A DNA stretch of 7,140 bases. Source: Sulfurimonas sp. Lineage in GTDB: Bacteria > Campylobacterota > Campylobacteria > Campylobacterales > Sulfurimonadaceae. The stretch spans positions 1 to 7,140 of the forward strand of contig JANTGV010000054.1 of the NCBI GenBank assembly GCA_024762745.1, written 5' to 3'. The notes below the pieces were generated by a model. The model did not search any database, had not been told where the DNA came from, and saw only the letters and a list, made by a program, of their open reading frames with translations. A program made the translations under genes and the position numbers. Below are positions 1 through 7,140 of this stretch, one piece after another. The stretch's first letter is position 1; every line of letters starts with the position of its first letter.

Positions 1-678
1 CTTATAGGTCCAAGTGGTTGTGGAAAATCTACACTTCTTAGAGCTATGAACCGTATTCATGACCTTTACCCTGGTAACATATATGATGGTAAAATAGAGC
101 TTTTGAACGAACAAACAAACAGCTATAGCAATATTCTTGATATCAAAAAAGAGAATGAGTTTATAAAGCTCCGTCAACAAGTTGGAATGATTTTTCAAAA
201 ACCGACACCCTTTCCAATGAGTATATTTGATAATGTAGCTTATGGTCTAAAGATTGCAGGAATAAAAAATAAAACTGAGCTTCAAGATAGAGTTGAAGCA
301 GCGCTGAAAGGAAGTGCCTTATGGAAAGAGGTTCACGATAGACTCAATGTATCTGCTATGGGTCTCTCAGGTGGTCAACAACAGCGTTTATGTATAGCAC
401 GTGCAGTTGCAGTAAAACCTGAAGTTTTACTCTTTGATGAACCGACATCTGCACTTGACCCTATCTCTACTGGAGCTATTGAAGAACTTTTGGTTGAGCT
501 GAAAAAAGATATCAGTATAGCAATCGTTACACACAATATGCAGCAAGCTTCTCGTATCAGTGATTACACTGCGTTTATGTATCTTGGTGATTTAGTCGAG
601 TATGACACAACTGAAAATATCTTCCTGAATCCTAAAGAGAAACAGACTGAAGATTATATAACTGGCCGTTTTGGTTAA
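1..678 (+). CDS. pstB: Phosphate ABC transporter ATP-binding protein PstB (5' end missing)
   Basis: PstB is the cytoplasmic ATPase that powers the PstSCAB high-affinity phosphate importer. The reading frame is open from base 1, so the gene starts upstream; the visible part is 225 residues of a usual 250-260, and only about 30 N-terminal residues are missing. ABC motifs appear in order (fragment numbering): Walker [10 protein letters not shown] at residues 3-11, Q-loop Gln66 in MIFQKP, signature LSGGQQQR at 122-129, Walker B LLFDEP with catalytic Glu147, and the H-loop His178 in VTHNMQQA. PstB-specific blocks set it apart from other ABC ATPases: [10 protein letters not shown], the [10 protein letters not shown] segment before the signature, and the YITGRFG C-terminus. 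The first ATG in view (46) lies after Walker A and cannot be the true start. phoU follows after 18 bases with no terminator between, which fits a pst-phoU operon. Confidence 0.97.
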
Positions 679-696
679 TAGATAAAAGGAAAATAC

Positions 697-1356
697 ATGG
701 TTTCAAATTTTGAAGAAAACTTATCAGAGATAAAAAACAGAGTAATTGATATAACTTCAGGACTTCTTGAGTCAAATAAAATACTTCTAAGTGCACTCAC
801 TGACTGTGACCCAGAGAAGTTTGTTGAGGCGAGAGCTCACATAAAAAACATCAGCGCTAAAACTGATGAGATTGACAACTCAATCATAAAAGTTCTTGCT
901 CTTTATACTCCAGAAGCGAGTGATTTAAGACAGGTAATAGCCTACTTAAAAATTACAAATGAGCTATCTCGAGCCTGCTCAAATACTCGAAGTTTCATTA
1001 GAGGTTTTACAGATGTATGTCAAGATGTTGACGTAGCTATAATCAAAGAGTATGCAGTACCTATGCAGACATCAACAGTACAAGCAATTGCACTTTCCAT
1101 TAGTATGATTAACTGTACTGATAATGATGAGATTCAAGAGATATATAATGATGTACTTATAGAAGAGAATAAAACTGATGATCTTTATGAAATGGTTGAG
1201 AGAAATCTCTCTAAACAGGCAGATGATGAAAGTAATTTTGAAAAATTTCACAAAATGTTAAGAGCTCTTAGAAAGAGTGAAAAAATTGCAGCCCGTACTA
1301 TAAGCATAGCAAACCTTCTTGTCTATGCTCAAGTTGGTGGAAGCTTTCGTAGCTAA
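697..1356 (+). CDS. phoU: PhoU-family phosphate signalling regulator
   Basis: PhoU proteins are cytoplasmic helical proteins that link the Pst transporter to the phosphate-sensing histidine kinase and damp phosphate uptake. The 219-residue product has the usual length and appears all-helical, with two related halves. The metal-site type acidic segments are visible as KTDEIDNSI (about 55-63) and EENKTDDLYEM (about 156-166). The PEASDLRQVIAYLKITNEL block (72-90) is typical of PhoU. The start ATG has a clear site, AAAAGGA at 684-690, six bases upstream. The position right after pstB supports the call. Oddity: the usual ERxGD-type motifs closing each half are degenerate, reading LSRACSNTRSFI near 90-101 and KSEKIAARTISIAN near 193-206, so this is a divergent PhoU. 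The protein lacks DNA-binding motifs, so it is not the response regulator. Confidence 0.9.
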   Translation: MVSNFEENLSEIKNRVIDITSGLLESNKILLSALTDCDPEKFVEARAHIKNISAKTDEIDNSIIKVLALYTPEASDLRQVIAYLKITNELSRACSNTRSFIRGFTDVCQDVDVAIIKEYAVPMQTSTVQAIALSISMINCTDNDEIQEIYNDVLIEENKTDDLYEMVERNLSKQADDESNFEKFHKMLRALRKSEKIAARTISIANLLVYAQVGGSFRS

Positions 1357-1368
1357 CCAACACAAAAA

Positions 1369-1408
1369 GTAAGAGTAAATTTCACTCTTACACCACTTTC
1401 TCTTTTTT
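1369..1408 (+). terminator. Rho-independent-type terminator after phoU
   Basis: A perfect 8-bp stem GTAAGAGT (1369-1376) / ACTCTTAC (1384-1391) encloses a 7-base loop. It lies 12 bases after the phoU stop. On the + strand a T-rich run ends in six Ts (1403-1408), but it begins several bases past the stem. On the - strand the stem is followed at once by five Ts (complement of 1364-1368), so the element may work in both directions. The stem is only moderately GC-rich, so efficiency is uncertain. It likely separates the pst-phoU transcript from the lipoprotein genes. Confidence 0.7.
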
Positions 1409-1444: not shown

Positions 1445-1483
1445 CTTCATAGTTTTACTCATGTAACACAAGCCACTTATACT
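1445..1483 (+). promoter_or_regulatory. Candidate promoter, possibly phosphate-regulated, for the PhoX-like fusion
   Basis: The best -10 is TATACT at 1478-1483, about 30 bases before the start codon. No good -35 is present; TTTACT at 1454-1459 is the closest, with 18-base spacing. In place of a -35 there are two similar short blocks, ACTTCATAG (from 1444) and ACTCATGT (from 1457), about 12-13 bases apart. Activator-dependent Pho promoters often carry direct repeats in place of a -35, so this is compatible with a pho-box-like site. The match to any known PhoB or PhosR consensus is weak and the reading is speculative. Confidence 0.3.
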
Positions 1484-1512: not shown

Positions 1513-4500
1513 ATGAAAAGATGGTTAAGTTTAGCTGCGTGTGCAGTTTTGGTTGCTGCGATGGCTGGTTGTAATGGTAGTGATGGTGCTGCAGGTGCTG
1601 ACGGTGCTGCAGGCGCTGACGGTTCTGCAGGTGTTGATGGTACTGGTATTGATGGTACAAATGGTATTAATGGAATATCATCAGTGTCATTTAATAGATA
1701 TGAAAACAATGCTATAGAGTCTATAGTTCAACTAGAGAACATTCCGGTTCCAACGGGTGATGATCAGAAAACTATTAATACCTCTTCATCTGTAGTCTTT
1801 GGTGATGAGTTTCAGGCAATCGGCTTTAACAAACTTCTTGCAACTGCTGATGTAAACAATGGTGAGACTTTTGGTCTATTAAAAGATTATCAAGATGCAA
1901 CTATTACATTCAGCGATGGTAGTCCTTACATCTGTAATGGTACAAATTCAGGTGTAGGTTCCGGTCTTGACTATACATCTATCTTGCAAAAAAACAACAA
2001 ACTTTATATGGTTTCTCAATTTGAGTGTCAAGTTGGAGCTTTATACAAAGCTGAACTTGAACAAGATACAACTACAGGAGAATTAAGTGTAAAAGACAAC
2101 TCTCTAGAGTTTGTTTCACAAAAGGAAGGTTTTGGTGGTTTCGTACACTGTGCTGGTCAAACAACTCCTTGGCAATCACATCTTGGTAGTGAAGAGTACG
2201 AGCCAAACGCAAGAGCTGTACTTGAGGATGCTGATGCTACTACAGGGCTTACAGGAAATAAGTATTATGATGAAGTAGCAAAGTACTGGGGTGACGATAT
2301 TACTAAAGCGAGTCCATACTATTATGGTTGGACACCTGAAGTAACTATAGATGCTACTGGTGCTGCTGTATATACAAAACACTACTCATTGGGTCGTATG
2401 TCACATGAGCTATCTTATGTTATGCCGGATAGAAAAACAGTCTATATGTCTGATGATGGTACGAATGTTGGACTATTCATGTTTGTAGCAGACTCTGCTG
2501 AAAATTTAAGTGCCGGTACACTTTACGCTGCTAAATGGATTCAAAAAGATGGTGCAAACGGTGGAAACGCAGACCTAAGCTGGATTAAACTCGGGCACTC
2601 TAGCAATGCAGAGATAAAAGCTATTTTAGATGCAGATAATAATGTAAATACAAACGATGCTCCTCTATTTACAGATATATTTGAGACCGCTGAAGTTGCT
2701 AGTGATAACAGCTGTCCTACGGGCTTCACATCTGTGAATACATCTGCTTATCAAGAGTGTTTAAAAGTAAAACCAGGTCAAGAGACAGCAGCAGCTTTCT
2801 TAGAGACCAGAAGATACGCAGCACTTCTTGGTGCTACAACAGAATTCAGAAAAGAAGAGGGTATCACATACTCACCTGAACACGGGAAACTTTTTGTTGC
2901 AATGAGTGCCGTAGCATACGGTATGGAAGACAACAAGAAAAAAGGTGCCGAAAATACAAAATATGATATTGGTGGAAATAACGATATCAGAGTTCCTTAC
3001 AATCCATGTGGTGCTATCTACGCACTTGATGTTGCTAGCAACACTCAACCTGATATGGCTGGAGATGACATAGAGAGCTCTTATGTTGTTAACAACATGT
3101 ACGCGATTTTAACAGGTGAACCTGCAAGCTATCCTGCTGGTCATCCTTACGAGGGTAACAAATGTTCTATCAGTGGAATATCAAATCCAGATAATGTGAC
3201 TTACTTAGAAGACTCTAATCTGCTTTTCATAGGTGAAGATACATCAAGTCACTTAAATAATATGATCTGGGCTTATGACTTAACAAATGGTAAATTAACA
3301 AGAACATTAACGACACCTCTTGATGCTGAAACGACATCACCGTTTTGGTACAAAAACATTAATGGATTCGCCTACATGACAGCTGTAACACAACACCCTA
3401 TGGAAGATGTAGCTGGTGCTACTGATGCTCAAAAAGAGTCTTTTATCGGTGTTATGGGTCCAATCAAAAGTTTAGACTCTTTAAGTTCATCACTCGTTAA
3501 AGTTGGTGCTTACAACTCAGGTTTAGATGGTGGAAGTGAGATATCTGCGTTTGATGCAACTACTCAACAAGTTTTTATTACAAACGGTGCAGACAACACT
3601 TTAGATATTTTAGATGTATCTACTGTTAATGCTCCTGTGAAGACTACCTCTATCGACTTGTCTACATATGGTGCAGGTGTTCAAAGTGTAGCAACTTCAA
3701 ATGGGAAAGTTGCTGTTGCTGTTGCTTCAGCTGATAAAGTTGCAACTCAAGGTAAAGTAGTTATCTTTAACACAAATGGAACTTTCGATAAAGAGGTAAC
3801 TGTCGGTTATTTACCAGATATGGTTGCGTTTAGTACAGATGGTACAAAAGTGATTGTTGCAAATGAGGGAGAGCCTGATGCTAGCAGTGGTTCATATGTG
3901 GATGTAGCAGGAACTGTAGGAATTATTACAGTAGCAACTGGTGTTTACAACGAAACTGGATTTGTTGATGGTGACTTAAACGCTGCAGCTGATGGTACAG
4001 TTGTACGTAAAGGTGGAACGCCATCAGACTCCACTGCATTAGATATGGAGCCAGAGTTTGTTGCAATTGCTGGAGACAAAGCATATGTAACTCTACAAGA
4101 GAACAATGCTCTTGCTATCATCGATATTGCAACTGCTACACCAACTGTAGATAGTGTCAAATCTTTTGGTGCAAAAGATTACTCAAGCCAAAATAAAATA
4201 GATATTGAAGAGGAGGGGAAAATCCTTCTGAAAAACTATCCTGGACTTAAAGGTCTTTATCAACCAGATACAATTGTAGCTCATAACATCAACAGTACAG
4301 ACTACCTCTTTACTGCAAATGAAGGTGATGGAAGAGAGTACGAGGACTCAAGTAACAATGTAATATTTATCGATGAAGATAAAATTAAAAACTTAACTCT
4401 TGATGCTTCTATAGCTGACGCTTATGCAGATGAAAATGACCTAAAAGTTATGACTGACATCTCTACTTCTACTGAACTTTATACTTTTGGTGGTAGAAGC

Positions 4501-4905
4501 TTTTCTATATGGGACACAAATGGTGACTTAGTATGGGATAGTGGCGATGAAATCTCTAAACTTGTTGCGAAGTATGAGCCTAAACTCTTTAACCAAGATG
4601 ATGCAGAAATCGATGGTAGAAGTGGTAATAAAGGTGCTGAACCTGAAGCTATCGCTGTTGGTACACTCTCAAACGGTAAAGTATACGCTTTTGTTGGTCT
4701 TGAGAGACAGAGTGCAATTGTTATCTATGATGTTAGTAACCCACAAGCTCCAGAGTTTGTTGATTATGTTGTGACACATACTGACAATGATATCTCACCA
4801 GAGGGCATGAAGTTTATTCCAGCTTCTAATACTCCAAACGCAAAAGATCTACTTTTAGTATCTTATGAAGTTAGTGGTTCAACTGTTATTTATGAAGTTA
4901 AATAA
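1513..4905 (+). CDS. PhoX/DUF839-type phosphatase fused to choice-of-anchor-I beta-propeller, collagen-linked lipoprotein
   Basis: This 1130-residue envelope protein probably hydrolyses organic phosphate esters to feed phosphate uptake; activity is inferred from the PhoX-like half. Residues 1-20 form a lipoprotein signal with lipobox MAGC and acylated Cys20. Residues 22-56 are Gly-X-Y collagen-like repeats. Residues about 75-655 resemble PhoX/DUF839 propellers: HCAGQTTPW (212-220) followed by SEE (226-228), GRMSHE (294-299), the SDDGTNVGLFMF strand (313-324), EEGITY (448-453), NPDNVTYLEDSNLLFIGED (558-576) and the QHP near 627-629. Cys213 sits where PhoX carries its iron-bridging cysteine. 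Residues about 660-1130 are a full choice-of-anchor-I domain: PDMVAFSTDGTKVIVANEGEPD (from 768), LQENNALAIIDI, ANEGDGREYE, FGGRSFSIWD, KGAEPEAIAVG and a C-terminal VSGSTVIYEVK. The start is fixed by AGGAGT at 1500-1505, seven bases upstream, and by the signal peptide. Six or more other cysteines (141, 172, 401, 416, 499, 551) could form disulfides. The upstream pst-phoU genes support a phosphate role. The first half diverges from canonical PhoX, so lost or altered specificity is possible. Confidence 0.85.
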   Translation: MKRWLSLAACAVLVAAMAGCNGSDGAAGADGAAGADGSAGVDGTGIDGTNGINGISSVSFNRYENNAIESIVQLENIPVPTGDDQKTINTSSSVVFGDEFQAIGFNKLLATADVNNGETFGLLKDYQDATITFSDGSPYICNGTNSGVGSGLDYTSILQKNNKLYMVSQFECQVGALYKAELEQDTTTGELSVKDNSLEFVSQKEGFGGFVHCAGQTTPWQSHLGSEEYEPNARAVLEDADATTGLTGNKYYDEVAKYWGDDITKASPYYYGWTPEVTIDATGAAVYTKHYSLGRMSHELSYVMPDRKTVYMSDDGTNVGLFMFVADSAENLSAGTLYAAKWIQKDGANGGNADLSWIKLGHSSNAEIKAILDADNNVNTNDAPLFTDIFETAEVASDNSCPTGFTSVNTSAYQECLKVKPGQETAAAFLETRRYAALLGATTEFRKEEGITYSPEHGKLFVAMSAVAYGMEDNKKKGAENTKYDIGGNNDIRVPYNPCGAIYALDVASNTQPDMAGDDIESSYVVNNMYAILTGEPASYPAGHPYEGNKCSISGISNPDNVTYLEDSNLLFIGEDTSSHLNNMIWAYDLTNGKLTRTLTTPLDAETTSPFWYKNINGFAYMTAVTQHPMEDVAGATDAQKESFIGVMGPIKSLDSLSSSLVKVGAYNSGLDGGSEISAFDATTQQVFITNGADNTLDILDVSTVNAPVKTTSIDLSTYGAGVQSVATSNGKVAVAVASADKVATQGKVVIFNTNGTFDKEVTVGYLPDMVAFSTDGTKVIVANEGEPDASSGSYVDVAGTVGIITVATGVYNETGFVDGDLNAAADGTVVRKGGTPSDSTALDMEPEFVAIAGDKAYVTLQENNALAIIDIATATPTVDSVKSFGAKDYSSQNKIDIEEEGKILLKNYPGLKGLYQPDTIVAHNINSTDYLFTANEGDGREYEDSSNNVIFIDEDKIKNLTLDASIADAYADENDLKVMTDISTSTELYTFGGRSFSIWDTNGDLVWDSGDEISKLVAKYEPKLFNQDDAEIDGRSGNKGAEPEAIAVGTLSNGKVYAFVGLERQSAIVIYDVSNPQAPEFVDYVVTHTDNDISPEGMKFIPASNTPNAKDLLLVSYEVSGSTVIYEVK
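1585..1638 (+). repeat. Three tandem 18-bp repeats coding collagen-like Gly-X-Y
   Basis: Units of 18 bp begin at 1585, 1603 and 1621. Units 1 and 2 (GGTGCTGCAGGTGCTGAC) differ at one base; unit 3 has diverged further. They encode GAAGAD, GAAGAD and GSAGVD. The wider Gly-X-Y tract spans codons 22-56 (1576-1680), with glycine at 22, 25, 28, 31, 34, 37, 40, 43, then a one-residue skip to 45, 48, 51 and 54. The tract directly follows the lipidated cysteine and probably acts as a stalk or trimerising linker. Such repeats can change copy number by slippage. Confidence 0.85.
4863..4900 (+). repeat. 11-bp direct repeat giving two in-frame Met-Lys-Leu starts
   Basis: TTATGAAGTTA occurs at 4863-4873 and again at 4890-4900, exactly 27 bases apart. 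Each copy holds an ATG (4865 and 4892) in the frame of the downstream lipoprotein and encodes Met-Lys-Leu. Both copies also lie within the 3' end of the upstream gene, in another frame. Neither ATG has a convincing Shine-Dalgarno site. The repeat makes the true start ambiguous; 4892 is preferred because it gives a normal-length signal peptide (28 versus 37 residues to the lipid cysteine). Confidence 0.6.
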
Positions 4906-6679
4906 CTCTCAACTCTTCCCTTTTTTAGGGAAGACAATACTTGTAAGTGTTGGACTTATTGCAACTCTTGGTTGTAATAACTCGAGCAGTAACCCAGAGA
5001 AAAAAATACAAGAACTTGAAATTAAAACTCAAGAGCTTGAAAAAATCGTAGTTGAACCTATTAATGTCGACTTTAAAACTACTCTCTCTAGAAATAATGC
5101 AGCAGCCTATGTTACGTCACAGTGTTATACAAAAACTCAAGACAATAGCTCATCAATAGCGCACAATCCCTGTTTTTCATGTCATATCAACTCCATTGAG
5201 CCCAACTATATTGATGATGCAGAACTGCAAACGCTTAATGACTTTAGTGACTATACAAAAATAAACCGTTTCACTAATCTTTTTAAAGATAGAACAGCTT
5301 TAGTTGAACAGATAAGTGATGAAGAGATTTTATCTTATATACGAGAAGACAACTATTTAAAGAACCAAGAGATTAAACTTGCTCAAAAACTATCAAATAT
5401 ACCGAGTGAGTGGGATGTAAATGAAGATGGGATCTGGAATGGATATATGCCGGACTGCTACTTTAACTTTGACAATGAGGGTTTTGATAGAGACAAGCAG
5501 AATAACTTTACAGGTTGGAGAGCTTTCTCTTACTATCCATTTTTAGGAACTTTTTGGCCAACAAACGGCAGTACAGATGATGTGCTTATCAGGCTTCCAA
5601 AAGCCTTTCAAGAAGATATAAATGGAAACTTTTCTAAAGAGATTTATAAAGTCAACCTCGCTATAGTAGAGTCTCTTATAAAGCAAAAAGATATACAGAT
5701 AAATGAAGTAGATGAGAGCCTCTATGGTGTTGACTTAGACCAAAATGGAGTTTTAAACGCAGCTACAGAGATAATATTTAATTGGGAAAAACCTGATTAT
5801 AACTCAACCACGCAAAGAATTGAAAACTTCTCTATGAGTTATGTAGGTCGTGCTAAAGATATGCTCATAACAAATGAGCATCTCATAGCGCCAGGGCTTT
5901 ATCCAAAAGGGAGCGAGTTTTTGCACTCAGTAAGATATATTGATATTAATGAAAACAACAGTGTCAAAATGGCTTCCCGCATGAAAGAGTTACGTTACGC
6001 TAAAAAAGTACATTGGAACAGTTACCCTCAACTTCTTAATGCTTCCATGAGTGAGATAATGGAAAAAGATCTCTTTCCCGATAGATTAAGAACTATTGTC
6101 GGAGACAGTGAAAGAGGTCTTCAAACAGGTTTAGGATGGACCTACCAAGGCTTTATAGAAGATGCAGAGGGTGAGCTTAGACCTCAAAACTACGAAGAAA
6201 CGCAGTACTGTATAGGGTGTCACAGCGGTATTGGTGCTATTGCGGACTCTACTTTTGTTTTTCAGAGAAAATTTGACTTTGATTCACACCAAAACGGATG
6301 GTACCACTGGCTACAAGAGAGCAATGGCTTTAAAAATATCAAAGAACCAAGAACTAAAAATGGAGAGTATGAGTACTCACTCTATTTAGACAAAAACCAT
6401 GCCGGTGACGAGTTTAGAGCAAACAGTGAAGTAATAGAGAAGTTTTTTCATACAGATGGAACTCTTAAAGAAGAGGAGACTTCAATACTACACAATGATA
6501 TATCCCACCTCATAATACCATCTACACAAAGAGCACTAGAGTTAAACAAAGCCTATAAAGTAATCGTGGATGAGCAGAGTTATATATATGGTAGAGATGC
6601 CCATATAGAACCTGTAAAAAATGTTCACAAAAGTATTGTTCCTGAGACAGAAACCGGTAATGAAATGGTGATTTTTTGA
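4892..6679 (+). CDS. Uncharacterised lipoprotein with two CxxCH haem-c motifs
   Basis: The 595-residue product appears to be an exported dihaem c-type lipoprotein of unknown role; I recognise no named family. A hydrophobic stretch TILVSVGLIATLGC ends in lipobox Cys28. A polar linker and a short heptad-like, probably coiled, segment (about 36-53, KKIQELEIKTQELEKIV) follow. CFSCH (94-98; bases 5171-5185) and CIGCH (440-444; bases 6209-6223) are the haem motifs, separated by about 340 residues. Two Asp/Asn-rich loops, DVNEDGIWNG (175-184) and DLDQNGVLN (281-289), look like calcium-binding loops. Extra cysteines lie at 78 and 189. Distal haem ligands cannot be assigned by eye. The gene overlaps the upstream fusion gene by 14 bases with no clear ribosome site, which suggests translational coupling. 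An alternative start at 4865 would add nine residues. The phosphate-locus setting may mean shared regulation; a role in electron transfer or metal redox is only a guess. Confidence 0.8.
   Translation: MKLNNSQLFPFLGKTILVSVGLIATLGCNNSSSNPEKKIQELEIKTQELEKIVVEPINVDFKTTLSRNNAAAYVTSQCYTKTQDNSSSIAHNPCFSCHINSIEPNYIDDAELQTLNDFSDYTKINRFTNLFKDRTALVEQISDEEILSYIREDNYLKNQEIKLAQKLSNIPSEWDVNEDGIWNGYMPDCYFNFDNEGFDRDKQNNFTGWRAFSYYPFLGTFWPTNGSTDDVLIRLPKAFQEDINGNFSKEIYKVNLAIVESLIKQKDIQINEVDESLYGVDLDQNGVLNAATEIIFNWEKPDYNSTTQRIENFSMSYVGRAKDMLITNEHLIAPGLYPKGSEFLHSVRYIDINENNSVKMASRMKELRYAKKVHWNSYPQLLNASMSEIMEKDLFPDRLRTIVGDSERGLQTGLGWTYQGFIEDAEGELRPQNYEETQYCIGCHSGIGAIADSTFVFQRKFDFDSHQNGWYHWLQESNGFKNIKEPRTKNGEYEYSLYLDKNHAGDEFRANSEVIEKFFHTDGTLKEEETSILHNDISHLIIPSTQRALELNKAYKVIVDEQSYIYGRDAHIEPVKNVHKSIVPETETGNEMVIF
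4914..4934 (+). other. Hairpin at the gene junction, inside the start of the second lipoprotein
   Basis: A perfect 7-bp stem TCTTCCC (4914-4920) / GGGAAGA (4928-4934) closes a 7-base loop of TTTTTTA. It begins 8 bases after the stop codon of the PhoX-like fusion, where a terminator would be expected, but it lies within codons 8-15 of the overlapping downstream gene. No T-run follows the stem, so it is not a standard terminator. It may act as an mRNA stability or translation-tuning element, or be a coincidence of coding sequence. Confidence 0.4.
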
Positions 6680-6788: not shown

Positions 6789-7140
6789 ATGAAACTTAAC
6801 AAAAAAATTCTTCTTAGTTCAGCAGCGGCTGCTTTAGCATTATCTTTCACAGCATGTGGTGGTGGCGGAGGTGGTGGTTCTACTACACCGACTACACCAC
6901 CAACTCCTGCAACTGATGCAGAAACTATCGTTAATAATGGAGATTTCACTGGTTCAGGTGCTCTTCAAGCAGCAACTAGATATCTTGCAAATGACGCTAC
7001 TTTCGCTTTACCTGCTACAGCTGGTATTGCAGCTGCAGATTCTGTAGACCAAGCGGCGATAAAGACATTAGCAGATACTAAAACATTAGATGATACAACA
7101 TTAAGTGGAGATATTACAGTTAATACAACTTTAACTTCTG
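6789..7140 (+). CDS. Lipoprotein with poly-Gly tether, start of a possible beta-helix protein (3' end missing)
   Basis: The frame is open from ATG 6789 to the window edge, giving 117 residues of a longer protein. The signal peptide MKLNKKILLSSAAAALALSF leads to lipobox TAC with acylated Cys23. Seven glycines (24-30) and a Ser/Thr/Pro linker (STTPTTPPTPAT) then form a flexible tether. From about residue 45 the mature region is Ala/Thr-rich. The last stretch, with LSGDITVNTTLTS near its end, resembles the opening turns of bacterial parallel beta-helix surface proteins, but too little is visible to assign a family. A clear GGAG ribosome site supports the start. No catalytic motif is visible, so function is unknown; surface location is inferred from the lipobox and linker. 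Confidence 0.8.
   Translation, partial: MKLNKKILLSSAAAALALSFTACGGGGGGGSTTPTTPPTPATDAETIVNNGDFTGSGALQAATRYLANDATFALPATAGIAAADSVDQAAIKTLADTKTLDDTTLSGDITVNTTLTS

What the first reader, a model, noticed from the sequence alone, without database searches (positions are those of the whole stretch)
1513..4905. Fusion of a PhoX-like phosphatase with a choice-of-anchor-I propeller
One uninterrupted frame holds two domains usually met as separate proteins: a PhoX/DUF839-like propeller (about 75-655) and a complete choice-of-anchor-I propeller (about 660-1130) with its usual C-terminal ending. The choice-of-anchor-I domain is known joined to nucleotidase or nuclease modules, so a PhoX partner suggests a two-propeller enzyme for extracellular phosphate release. 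The junction near residue 655-665 is short, implying tightly packed propellers.
Basis: partly seen in the sequence, partly recalled or inferred. Interest (0 to 1): 0.75.

Follow-up and report, generated by a model that had tools for sequence, protein, structure and literature searches.

The report
Two-part phosphatase lipoprotein beside diheme protein
A bacterium carries a probable surface lipoprotein in which a phosphate-releasing enzyme domain is fused to a second propeller-shaped domain also found on other phosphate-releasing enzymes, and its gene sits beside a gene for a two-heme protein that often accompanies this branch of the enzyme family.

Summary
Confirmed: one 1130-aa frame (1513-4905) holds a divergent PhoX domain and a complete C-terminal choice-of-anchor-I (coaI) domain; both pass Pfam cut-offs and model as propellers. 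The fusion is recurrent: 44 retrieved proteins, the window's included, carry both domains nearly complete. In 398 genomes of one Campylobacterota order coaI is over cut-off in 19: 7 on PhoX, 7 on a phytase-like domain, 4 on a 5'-nucleotidase, 1 alone. So coaI is a C-terminal module swapped among phosphohydrolases (at least 8 partner changes). The protein looks like a Sec-exported lipoprotein with a collagen-like stretch and PhoX metal-site residues in place, behind pstB-phoU: an extracytoplasmic phosphatase. 'Tightly packed' is not shown (pTM 0.68). The less expected result is next door. The downstream gene encodes a two-CxxCH protein whose relatives pair with this PhoX subfamily: 73 of 83 genomes with divergent PhoX, 0 of 15 with high-scoring canonical PhoX; in a gammaproteobacterial order, 31 of 33 PhoX genomes. 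Nine searches of an open-access paper library showed neither fusion nor pair. A role in building or oxidising the PhoX iron site outside the cytoplasm is my untested guess.

The parts
1513..4905 (+). PhoX-coaI fusion gene, 1130 aa plus stop
1513..1572 (+). Signal peptide with lipobox-like AMAGC; C20 is the presumed lipid attachment site
   Evidence: read from the sequence; pattern only, no signal-peptide program was run
1576..1680 (+). Collagen-like Gly-X-Y stretch, residues 22-56, modelled as disordered
   Evidence: read; pLDDT below 50 for residues 1-67; not reported as a Pfam Collagen match
1723..3468 (+). Divergent PhoX domain, residues about 71-652, with C213, E227/E228, E299, D315, K447, E449 at the aligned metal-site positions
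3493..4902 (+). Choice-of-anchor-I domain, residues about 661-1130
4892..6679 (+). Two-CxxCH (probably diheme c-type) protein, 595 aa from this start, lipobox-like TLGC; overlaps the fusion gene by 14 bases (a longer frame starts at 4865); CxxCH at 5171-5185 and 6209-6223
   Evidence: pairing
1..678 (+). pstB, cut off at the window start
   Evidence: TIGR00972 336.9 bits; curated cut-off 343.2, gene incomplete
697..1356 (+). phoU-like gene
   Evidence: PF01895 over cut-off; TIGR02135 59.7 bits, below its cut-off of 130.25
1369..1391 (.). Inverted repeat between phoU and the fusion, terminator-like on the - strand
   Evidence: 1 found, 0.0 in shuffles
1454..1483 (+). Promoter-like site before the fusion gene
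   Evidence: 9 of 12 matches; 2 found in the region on both strands, mean 0.5 in shuffles; weak

Best explanation
A Sec-exported lipoprotein held outside the cytoplasmic membrane on a collagen-like stretch. Its first propeller is a divergent PhoX phosphatase that releases phosphate from organic phosphoesters with an iron-calcium cofactor, for uptake by the Pst transporter encoded next door. Its second propeller, coaI, is an exchangeable C-terminal module, probably a second calcium-dependent phosphoesterase or a substrate-holding unit, which this group attaches to three kinds of phosphohydrolase. Shown by computation: domains, predicted folds, conserved residues at aligned PhoX metal-site positions, exchange of partners, gene neighbourhood. 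Inferred: export route, lipidation, metals, catalysis, the role of coaI.
For: PhoX and coaI over Pfam cut-offs; PhoX structure at Foldseek rank 1; the residues aligned to C179, E193, E194, E273 are identical in 56 of 56 rows, to D291 and D292 in 57 of 57, to E387 in 56 of 57, and the R385 position is Lys in 56 of 56. Lys in place of R385 is reported for the iron- and calcium-requiring phosphatase Psip1 (PMC11098088, abstract and section 6). pstB and a phoU-like gene upstream; related PhoX genes near PstB in L048 and, by reading of N-termini, in pst-phoU-phoB-like clusters in L086 and L087. Of 117 retrieved relatives 107 have a lipobox-like pattern and none a twin-arginine pattern. coaI is on phosphohydrolases in 18 of 19 genomes of the order sample and 38 polar columns of coaI are conserved in at least 28 of 29 rows. 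Some coaI relatives are named alkaline phosphatase or 5'-nucleotidase by their sources.
Against: PhoX match is weak (61.4 bits; canonical members in the same order score over 500) and NCBIfam has none. The alignment around R385/E387 is weak. No activity, metal or export was measured. Source names are automatic. A hairpin and a promoter-like site separate phoU and the fusion, so one transcript is not shown. The steady diheme neighbour is not expected for a plain phosphatase.
Confidence: 0.72

Rival explanations
1. coaI is not catalytic: it is a calcium-dependent binding or targeting module that holds different phosphohydrolases on a surface or substrate, and only the PhoX half is an enzyme.
For: coaI sits C-terminal to three unlike hydrolases and has changed partners; its fold matches many non-enzymatic propellers.
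Against: Solo coaI proteins exist (L015; many), and 38 polar columns, about 20 of them Asp or Glu, are nearly invariant, more than a plain scaffold needs.
Confidence: 0.4
2. The PhoX-like half is no longer a phosphatase but a redox or metal-handling partner of the diheme protein.
For: The diheme gene accompanies the divergent PhoX genes (73 of 83 genomes) and not the canonical ones (0 of 15), and overlaps the fusion gene here.
Against: PhoX metal-site residues are kept; 10 of 83 genomes with divergent PhoX lack a diheme match, and some of these PhoX genes lie in pst-pho clusters (L086, L087); fusion partners are phosphohydrolase modules.
Confidence: 0.12
3. The diheme gene only travels with PhoX as a neighbour in a nutrient or metal island and has no direct role in PhoX function.
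For: Position varies: downstream in L001 and L042-L045, upstream in L041 and L046.
Against: The pairing is seen in Campylobacterota and in two named Gammaproteobacteria of different orders, L003 and L005, and in 31 of 33 PhoX genomes of the order of G003.
Confidence: 0.4
4. The fusion is an assembly or annotation artefact.
For: One related record looks chimeric (L002/P0056).
Against: The same order of domains is nearly complete in 44 retrieved proteins and in 7 of 398 genomes, some on contigs over 2 Mb.
Confidence: 0.01

Closest known systems
PhoX alkaline phosphatase (Pfam PF05787; P. fluorescens PhoX 3zwu; C. jejuni PhoX)
   Same: Profile and fold match; aligned metal-site residues.
   Different: Scores 61 bits where canonical members of the order score 351-584 when unbroken or nearly so. 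No twin-arginine signal (C. jejuni PhoX is a Tat substrate: PMC3197622, passages); lipobox-like signal instead. Lys in place of R385. Extra C-terminal coaI domain.
Psip1 of marine picocyanobacteria (PMC11098088: outline and abstract, passages, section 6)
   Same: PhoX-like predicted propeller and active site, Lys in place of R385.
   Different: I did not compare the sequences. Psip1 is reported as a family of its own without clear sequence similarity to known phosphatases, and lacking a counterpart of D292; here D315 aligns with D292.
Atypical alkaline phosphatase PhoAaty (PMC4548154: passages and section 14; PMC6156274: passages)
   Same: Possible relative of coaI: a family of cyanobacteria, proteobacteria and algae with conserved Asp/Glu motifs. 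NF038117 rings in the Synechococcus elongatus control genome; the link is from recall.
   Different: No PhoAaty sequence was compared here. Its papers do not mention choice-of-anchor in the passages searched (one search found 0 in PMC4548154).
coaI joined to phytase-like (PF13449) or 5'-nucleotidase (PF00149, PF02872) domains
   Same: Same C-terminal coaI domain, N-terminal phosphohydrolase, same order of bacteria.
   Different: Different N-terminal enzyme. Two retrieved rows have coaI first (P0131, P0175).
Phosphotriesterase of Sphingobium TCM1 (5hrm)
   Same: Propeller at Foldseek ranks 4 and 6 for coaI (TM 0.52-0.53, 11% identity).
   Different: Many unrelated propellers score as well; not among the 50 rows of the second look.

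Membership tests
PhoX (PF05787) | Profile score over the family's cut-off | tested here: met
   61.4 bits against 24, part of the model only
PhoX (PF05787) | PhoX propeller fold | tested here: met
   3zwu at Foldseek rank 1, E 4.0e-19, on a predicted model
PhoX (PF05787) | Metal-site residues (C179, E273, D292, R385, E387 in P. fluorescens numbering; R385 and D292 named in PMC11098088, the others recalled) | tested here: met
   C213, E299, D315, E449 present; R385 is Lys. The part around R385/E387 rests on a weak alignment
PhoX (PF05787) | Export by Tat (canonical members) | tested here: not met
   No RR in the signal; 0 of 117 relatives by pattern, 12 of 12 fetched canonical genes have RR. 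This bars 'canonical PhoX', not the Pfam family
PhoX (PF05787) | Calcium- and iron-dependent phosphatase activity | not testable with these tools
   needs assay
Choice-of-anchor I (PF22494, NF038117) | Profile over cut-off along the whole domain | tested here: met
   255.5 against 32; 415.7 against 300, model 1-458 of 458
PhoAaty atypical alkaline phosphatase | Four shared motifs of the family | not tested
   motif letters are in a figure that is not held; no PhoAaty sequence was compared
Cytochrome P460 (PF16694), for the downstream gene | Profile over cut-off along the domain | tested here: inconclusive
   28.0-28.1 bits against 27, about 49 residues around one CxxCH; all 13 aligned members match at E up to 0.1

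The most novel reading that the evidence does not exclude
Lipoprotein-type, Sec-exported PhoX forms a distinct system with a dedicated diheme partner outside the cytoplasm. Tat-exported PhoX can take up its iron while folding in the cytoplasm; the Sec-exported form would have to build its iron-calcium site outside, and the diheme protein oxidises or delivers that iron, or sets the enzyme's activity by redox state. The window shows the pair with overlapping genes and with a swappable second propeller on the enzyme.
Probability: 0.13. Interest if true: 0.8.

Novelty: new variant of a known kind. Interest (0 to 1): 0.5.

Why it matters
It indicates that these bacteria build phosphate-scavenging enzymes from exchangeable parts, with coaI as a shared tail on three kinds of hydrolase. 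It also ties one PhoX subfamily to a two-CxxCH protein in two bacterial phyla, which makes a testable question of how an iron-calcium phosphatase is assembled when it is not exported by Tat. If coaI is itself a phosphatase, a large annotated but, as far as I found, unassayed family would gain a function.

Tried and rejected
Chance or chimera as the source of the fusion: rejected. coaI as a sequence relative of PhoX: profile-profile comparison aligned only signal peptides, probability 8.2. coaI in solved structures by sequence: none for the single sequence; for the profile a general propeller, surface-layer protein 1l0q, E 2.1e-7, and hydrazine synthase beta at 0.37. PhoX is not among the 50 rows of the second-look alignment of the whole model, which the coaI half filled. 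One transcript with phoU: left open.

Literature: nine searches. Searches returned mostly unrelated papers; a one-letter word such as the I of choice-of-anchor I may not be searchable (one search gave 0); hits were seen as a listing only. So 'not found in print' is weak, and most subscription papers are not held.

Limits of the counts. Protein lists are the best 120 of each of three searches, not a survey. 47 of the 327 proteins held were labelled PhoX-coaI, of which 44 have both domains nearly complete; the window's protein is one of them. Solo labels may include fragments. The co-occurrence tests take no account of kinship. The 125-bit line between canonical and divergent PhoX was set by me after seeing the scores. 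For the coaI tree near-copies (92% identity and over) were dropped, as was P0237, a short row labelled nucleotidase that looked like a fragment; domains under 430 residues or 350 bits were left out before. Trees are quick ones; those used a simpler model.

Full report
What is there. The frame 1513-4905 encodes 1130 aa. Residues 205-482 match PhoX (61.4 bits, cut-off 24) and 668-1129 match choice_anch_I (255.5 bits, cut-off 32) in Pfam; NF038117 matches over its whole length at 415.7 bits. The N-terminus reads as a lipoprotein signal (AMAGC) followed by Gly-X-Y triplets to residue 56; both are read from the sequence. The nearest relative, 89% identical, is named by its source as from a Campylobacterota bacterium, so I take the window to be from that phylum. 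No whole genome is held for the window.

PhoX half. Search of solved structures with the single sequence gave only a ribosomal protein at E 0.092, but a profile of 23 relatives found P. fluorescens PhoX at 1.1e-6, and the whole-protein model (pLDDT 88.0, pTM 0.68) has it at Foldseek rank 1. Through the alignment, C179, E193/E194, E273, D292, R385 and E387 fall on C213, E227/E228, E299, D315, K447 and E449. In an alignment of 81 sequences, of which about 56 reach this half, C213, E227, E228 and E299 are identical in 56 of 56, D314 and D315 in 57 of 57, K447 in 56 of 56 and E449 in 56 of 57. R385 and D292 are named as PhoX active-site residues in PMC11098088 (section 6), which also reports Lys in place of R385 in Psip1; the roles of the other positions are from recall. 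The stretch around R385 and E387 rests on a weak alignment piece.

How common. Of the 327 proteins held from three searches and the window, 47 were labelled PhoX-coaI, 35 phytase-like-coaI and 30 5'-nucleotidase-coaI; 44 of the 47 have both domains nearly complete. These are best-hit lists, not a survey. In 298 genomes of the phylum of G001 coaI is over cut-off in 8; in 398 genomes of its order, which overlap the first sample, in 19. By phmmer those 19 are 7 PhoX, 7 phytase-like, 4 5'-nucleotidase and 1 alone; 7 of the 19 were also checked with Pfam (L010-L016). coaI is C-terminal in all 18 fused cases of this sample, though two retrieved proteins have it first. PhoX is over cut-off in 98 of the 398. 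A tree of 106 fused coaI domains needs at least 8 partner changes where 2 would do, and a single clade of PhoX-partnered domains is rejected at p 0.025. On a quick PhoX tree, PhoX-phytase-like and PhoX-nucleotidase rows lie among PhoX-coaI rows. Exchange on both sides is the simplest reading.

Neighbours. pstB and a phoU-like gene lie upstream. A related PhoX gene lies near PstB in L048, and by order and reading of N-termini L086 and L087 look like pst-phoU-response-regulator clusters. Downstream, overlapping by 14 bases if it starts at 4892, is a 595-aa protein with two CxxCH. A relative lies on the same piece of DNA, mostly adjacent, in all seven PhoX-coaI loci of the order sample (L001, L041-L046) and beside PhoX in L003, L005 and L006; L002 shows none, but its PhoX frame runs out at a probable assembly join. 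Three genomes have it without a Pfam PhoX match (G414, G444, G476); G414 does carry a PhoX-coaI gene by phmmer. Split at 125 bits, 0 of 15 genomes with canonical PhoX and 73 of 83 with the divergent kind have it. In 62 genomes of the order of G003 (L003, Thiomicrospira sp. WB1, Gammaproteobacteria) it is in 31 and PhoX of this subfamily in 33; all 31 are among the 33, 29 of them within 5 kb, p 1e-15 with the same caveat. In both orders some matches are partial or weak (about 50-100 bits) and may be a second subfamily.

Export. The 12 canonical PhoX genes fetched, of 15 such genomes, all have twin arginines near the N-terminus, in line with C. jejuni PhoX being a Tat substrate (PMC3197622, passages). 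Of 117 retrieved relatives of this protein none has the pattern, 107 have a lipobox-like pattern and 40 a collagen-like stretch (simple patterns). Among the fetched divergent loci some PhoX genes show no lipobox by this pattern.

Reading. Best supported is an extracytoplasmic, tethered phosphatase with an exchangeable second propeller. The new part is the link between Sec-type PhoX and a diheme protein. Ten of 83 divergent-PhoX genomes show no diheme match, some with PhoX inside pst clusters, so the partner is not needed everywhere; incomplete genomes and the strict threshold may account for part. A role in oxidising or loading the iron of the PhoX site fits the contrast in export route, but nothing here tests it.

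Against what is known. The architecture exists in public annotation (PF05787 with PF22494), so the fusion is a variant of a known kind, not a discovery. Nine literature searches showed neither the fusion nor the diheme pair, with the limits stated under Tried and rejected.

Noticed in passing
window 4892-6679: Two-CxxCH protein downstream of the fusion; relatives pair with divergent PhoX genes in two orders. Also has EF-hand-like Asp-rich loops by eye.
   Followed up: partly
L041:4648-12671: A PhoX-5'-nucleotidase gene and a PhoX-coaI gene lie side by side. The contig length equals that given for P0035 (Malaciobacter pacificus), so probably that species.
   Followed up: no
L031, L032 (G341:C27, G356:C104): In two genomes the coaI match runs 55-458 (70-458) first and 1-70 after it in one frame with a phytase-like domain: looks like a circularly permuted coaI.
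   Followed up: no
L041, L042, L043, L044, L046, L047: A gene of about 235 aa starting M(N/T)KSDITN or alike follows the PhoX fusion or diheme gene; L041, L046 and L047 also have three small genes between diheme and PhoX, one with HPHYFLD-like start (by eye).
   Followed up: no
P0095, P0105: PhoX joined to PF03372 (exonuclease/endonuclease/phosphatase), PF00801 and PF18911 domains: further PhoX partners.
   Followed up: no
L002 / P0056 and L009: In one metagenome-derived genome the PhoX frame runs into unrelated sequence while the coaI end lies on another contig, probably an assembly join. Left as it is.
   Followed up: no
window 6789-7139: Start of a further lipoprotein-like gene with a Gly-rich stretch after the lipobox, cut off by the window end.
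   Followed up: no
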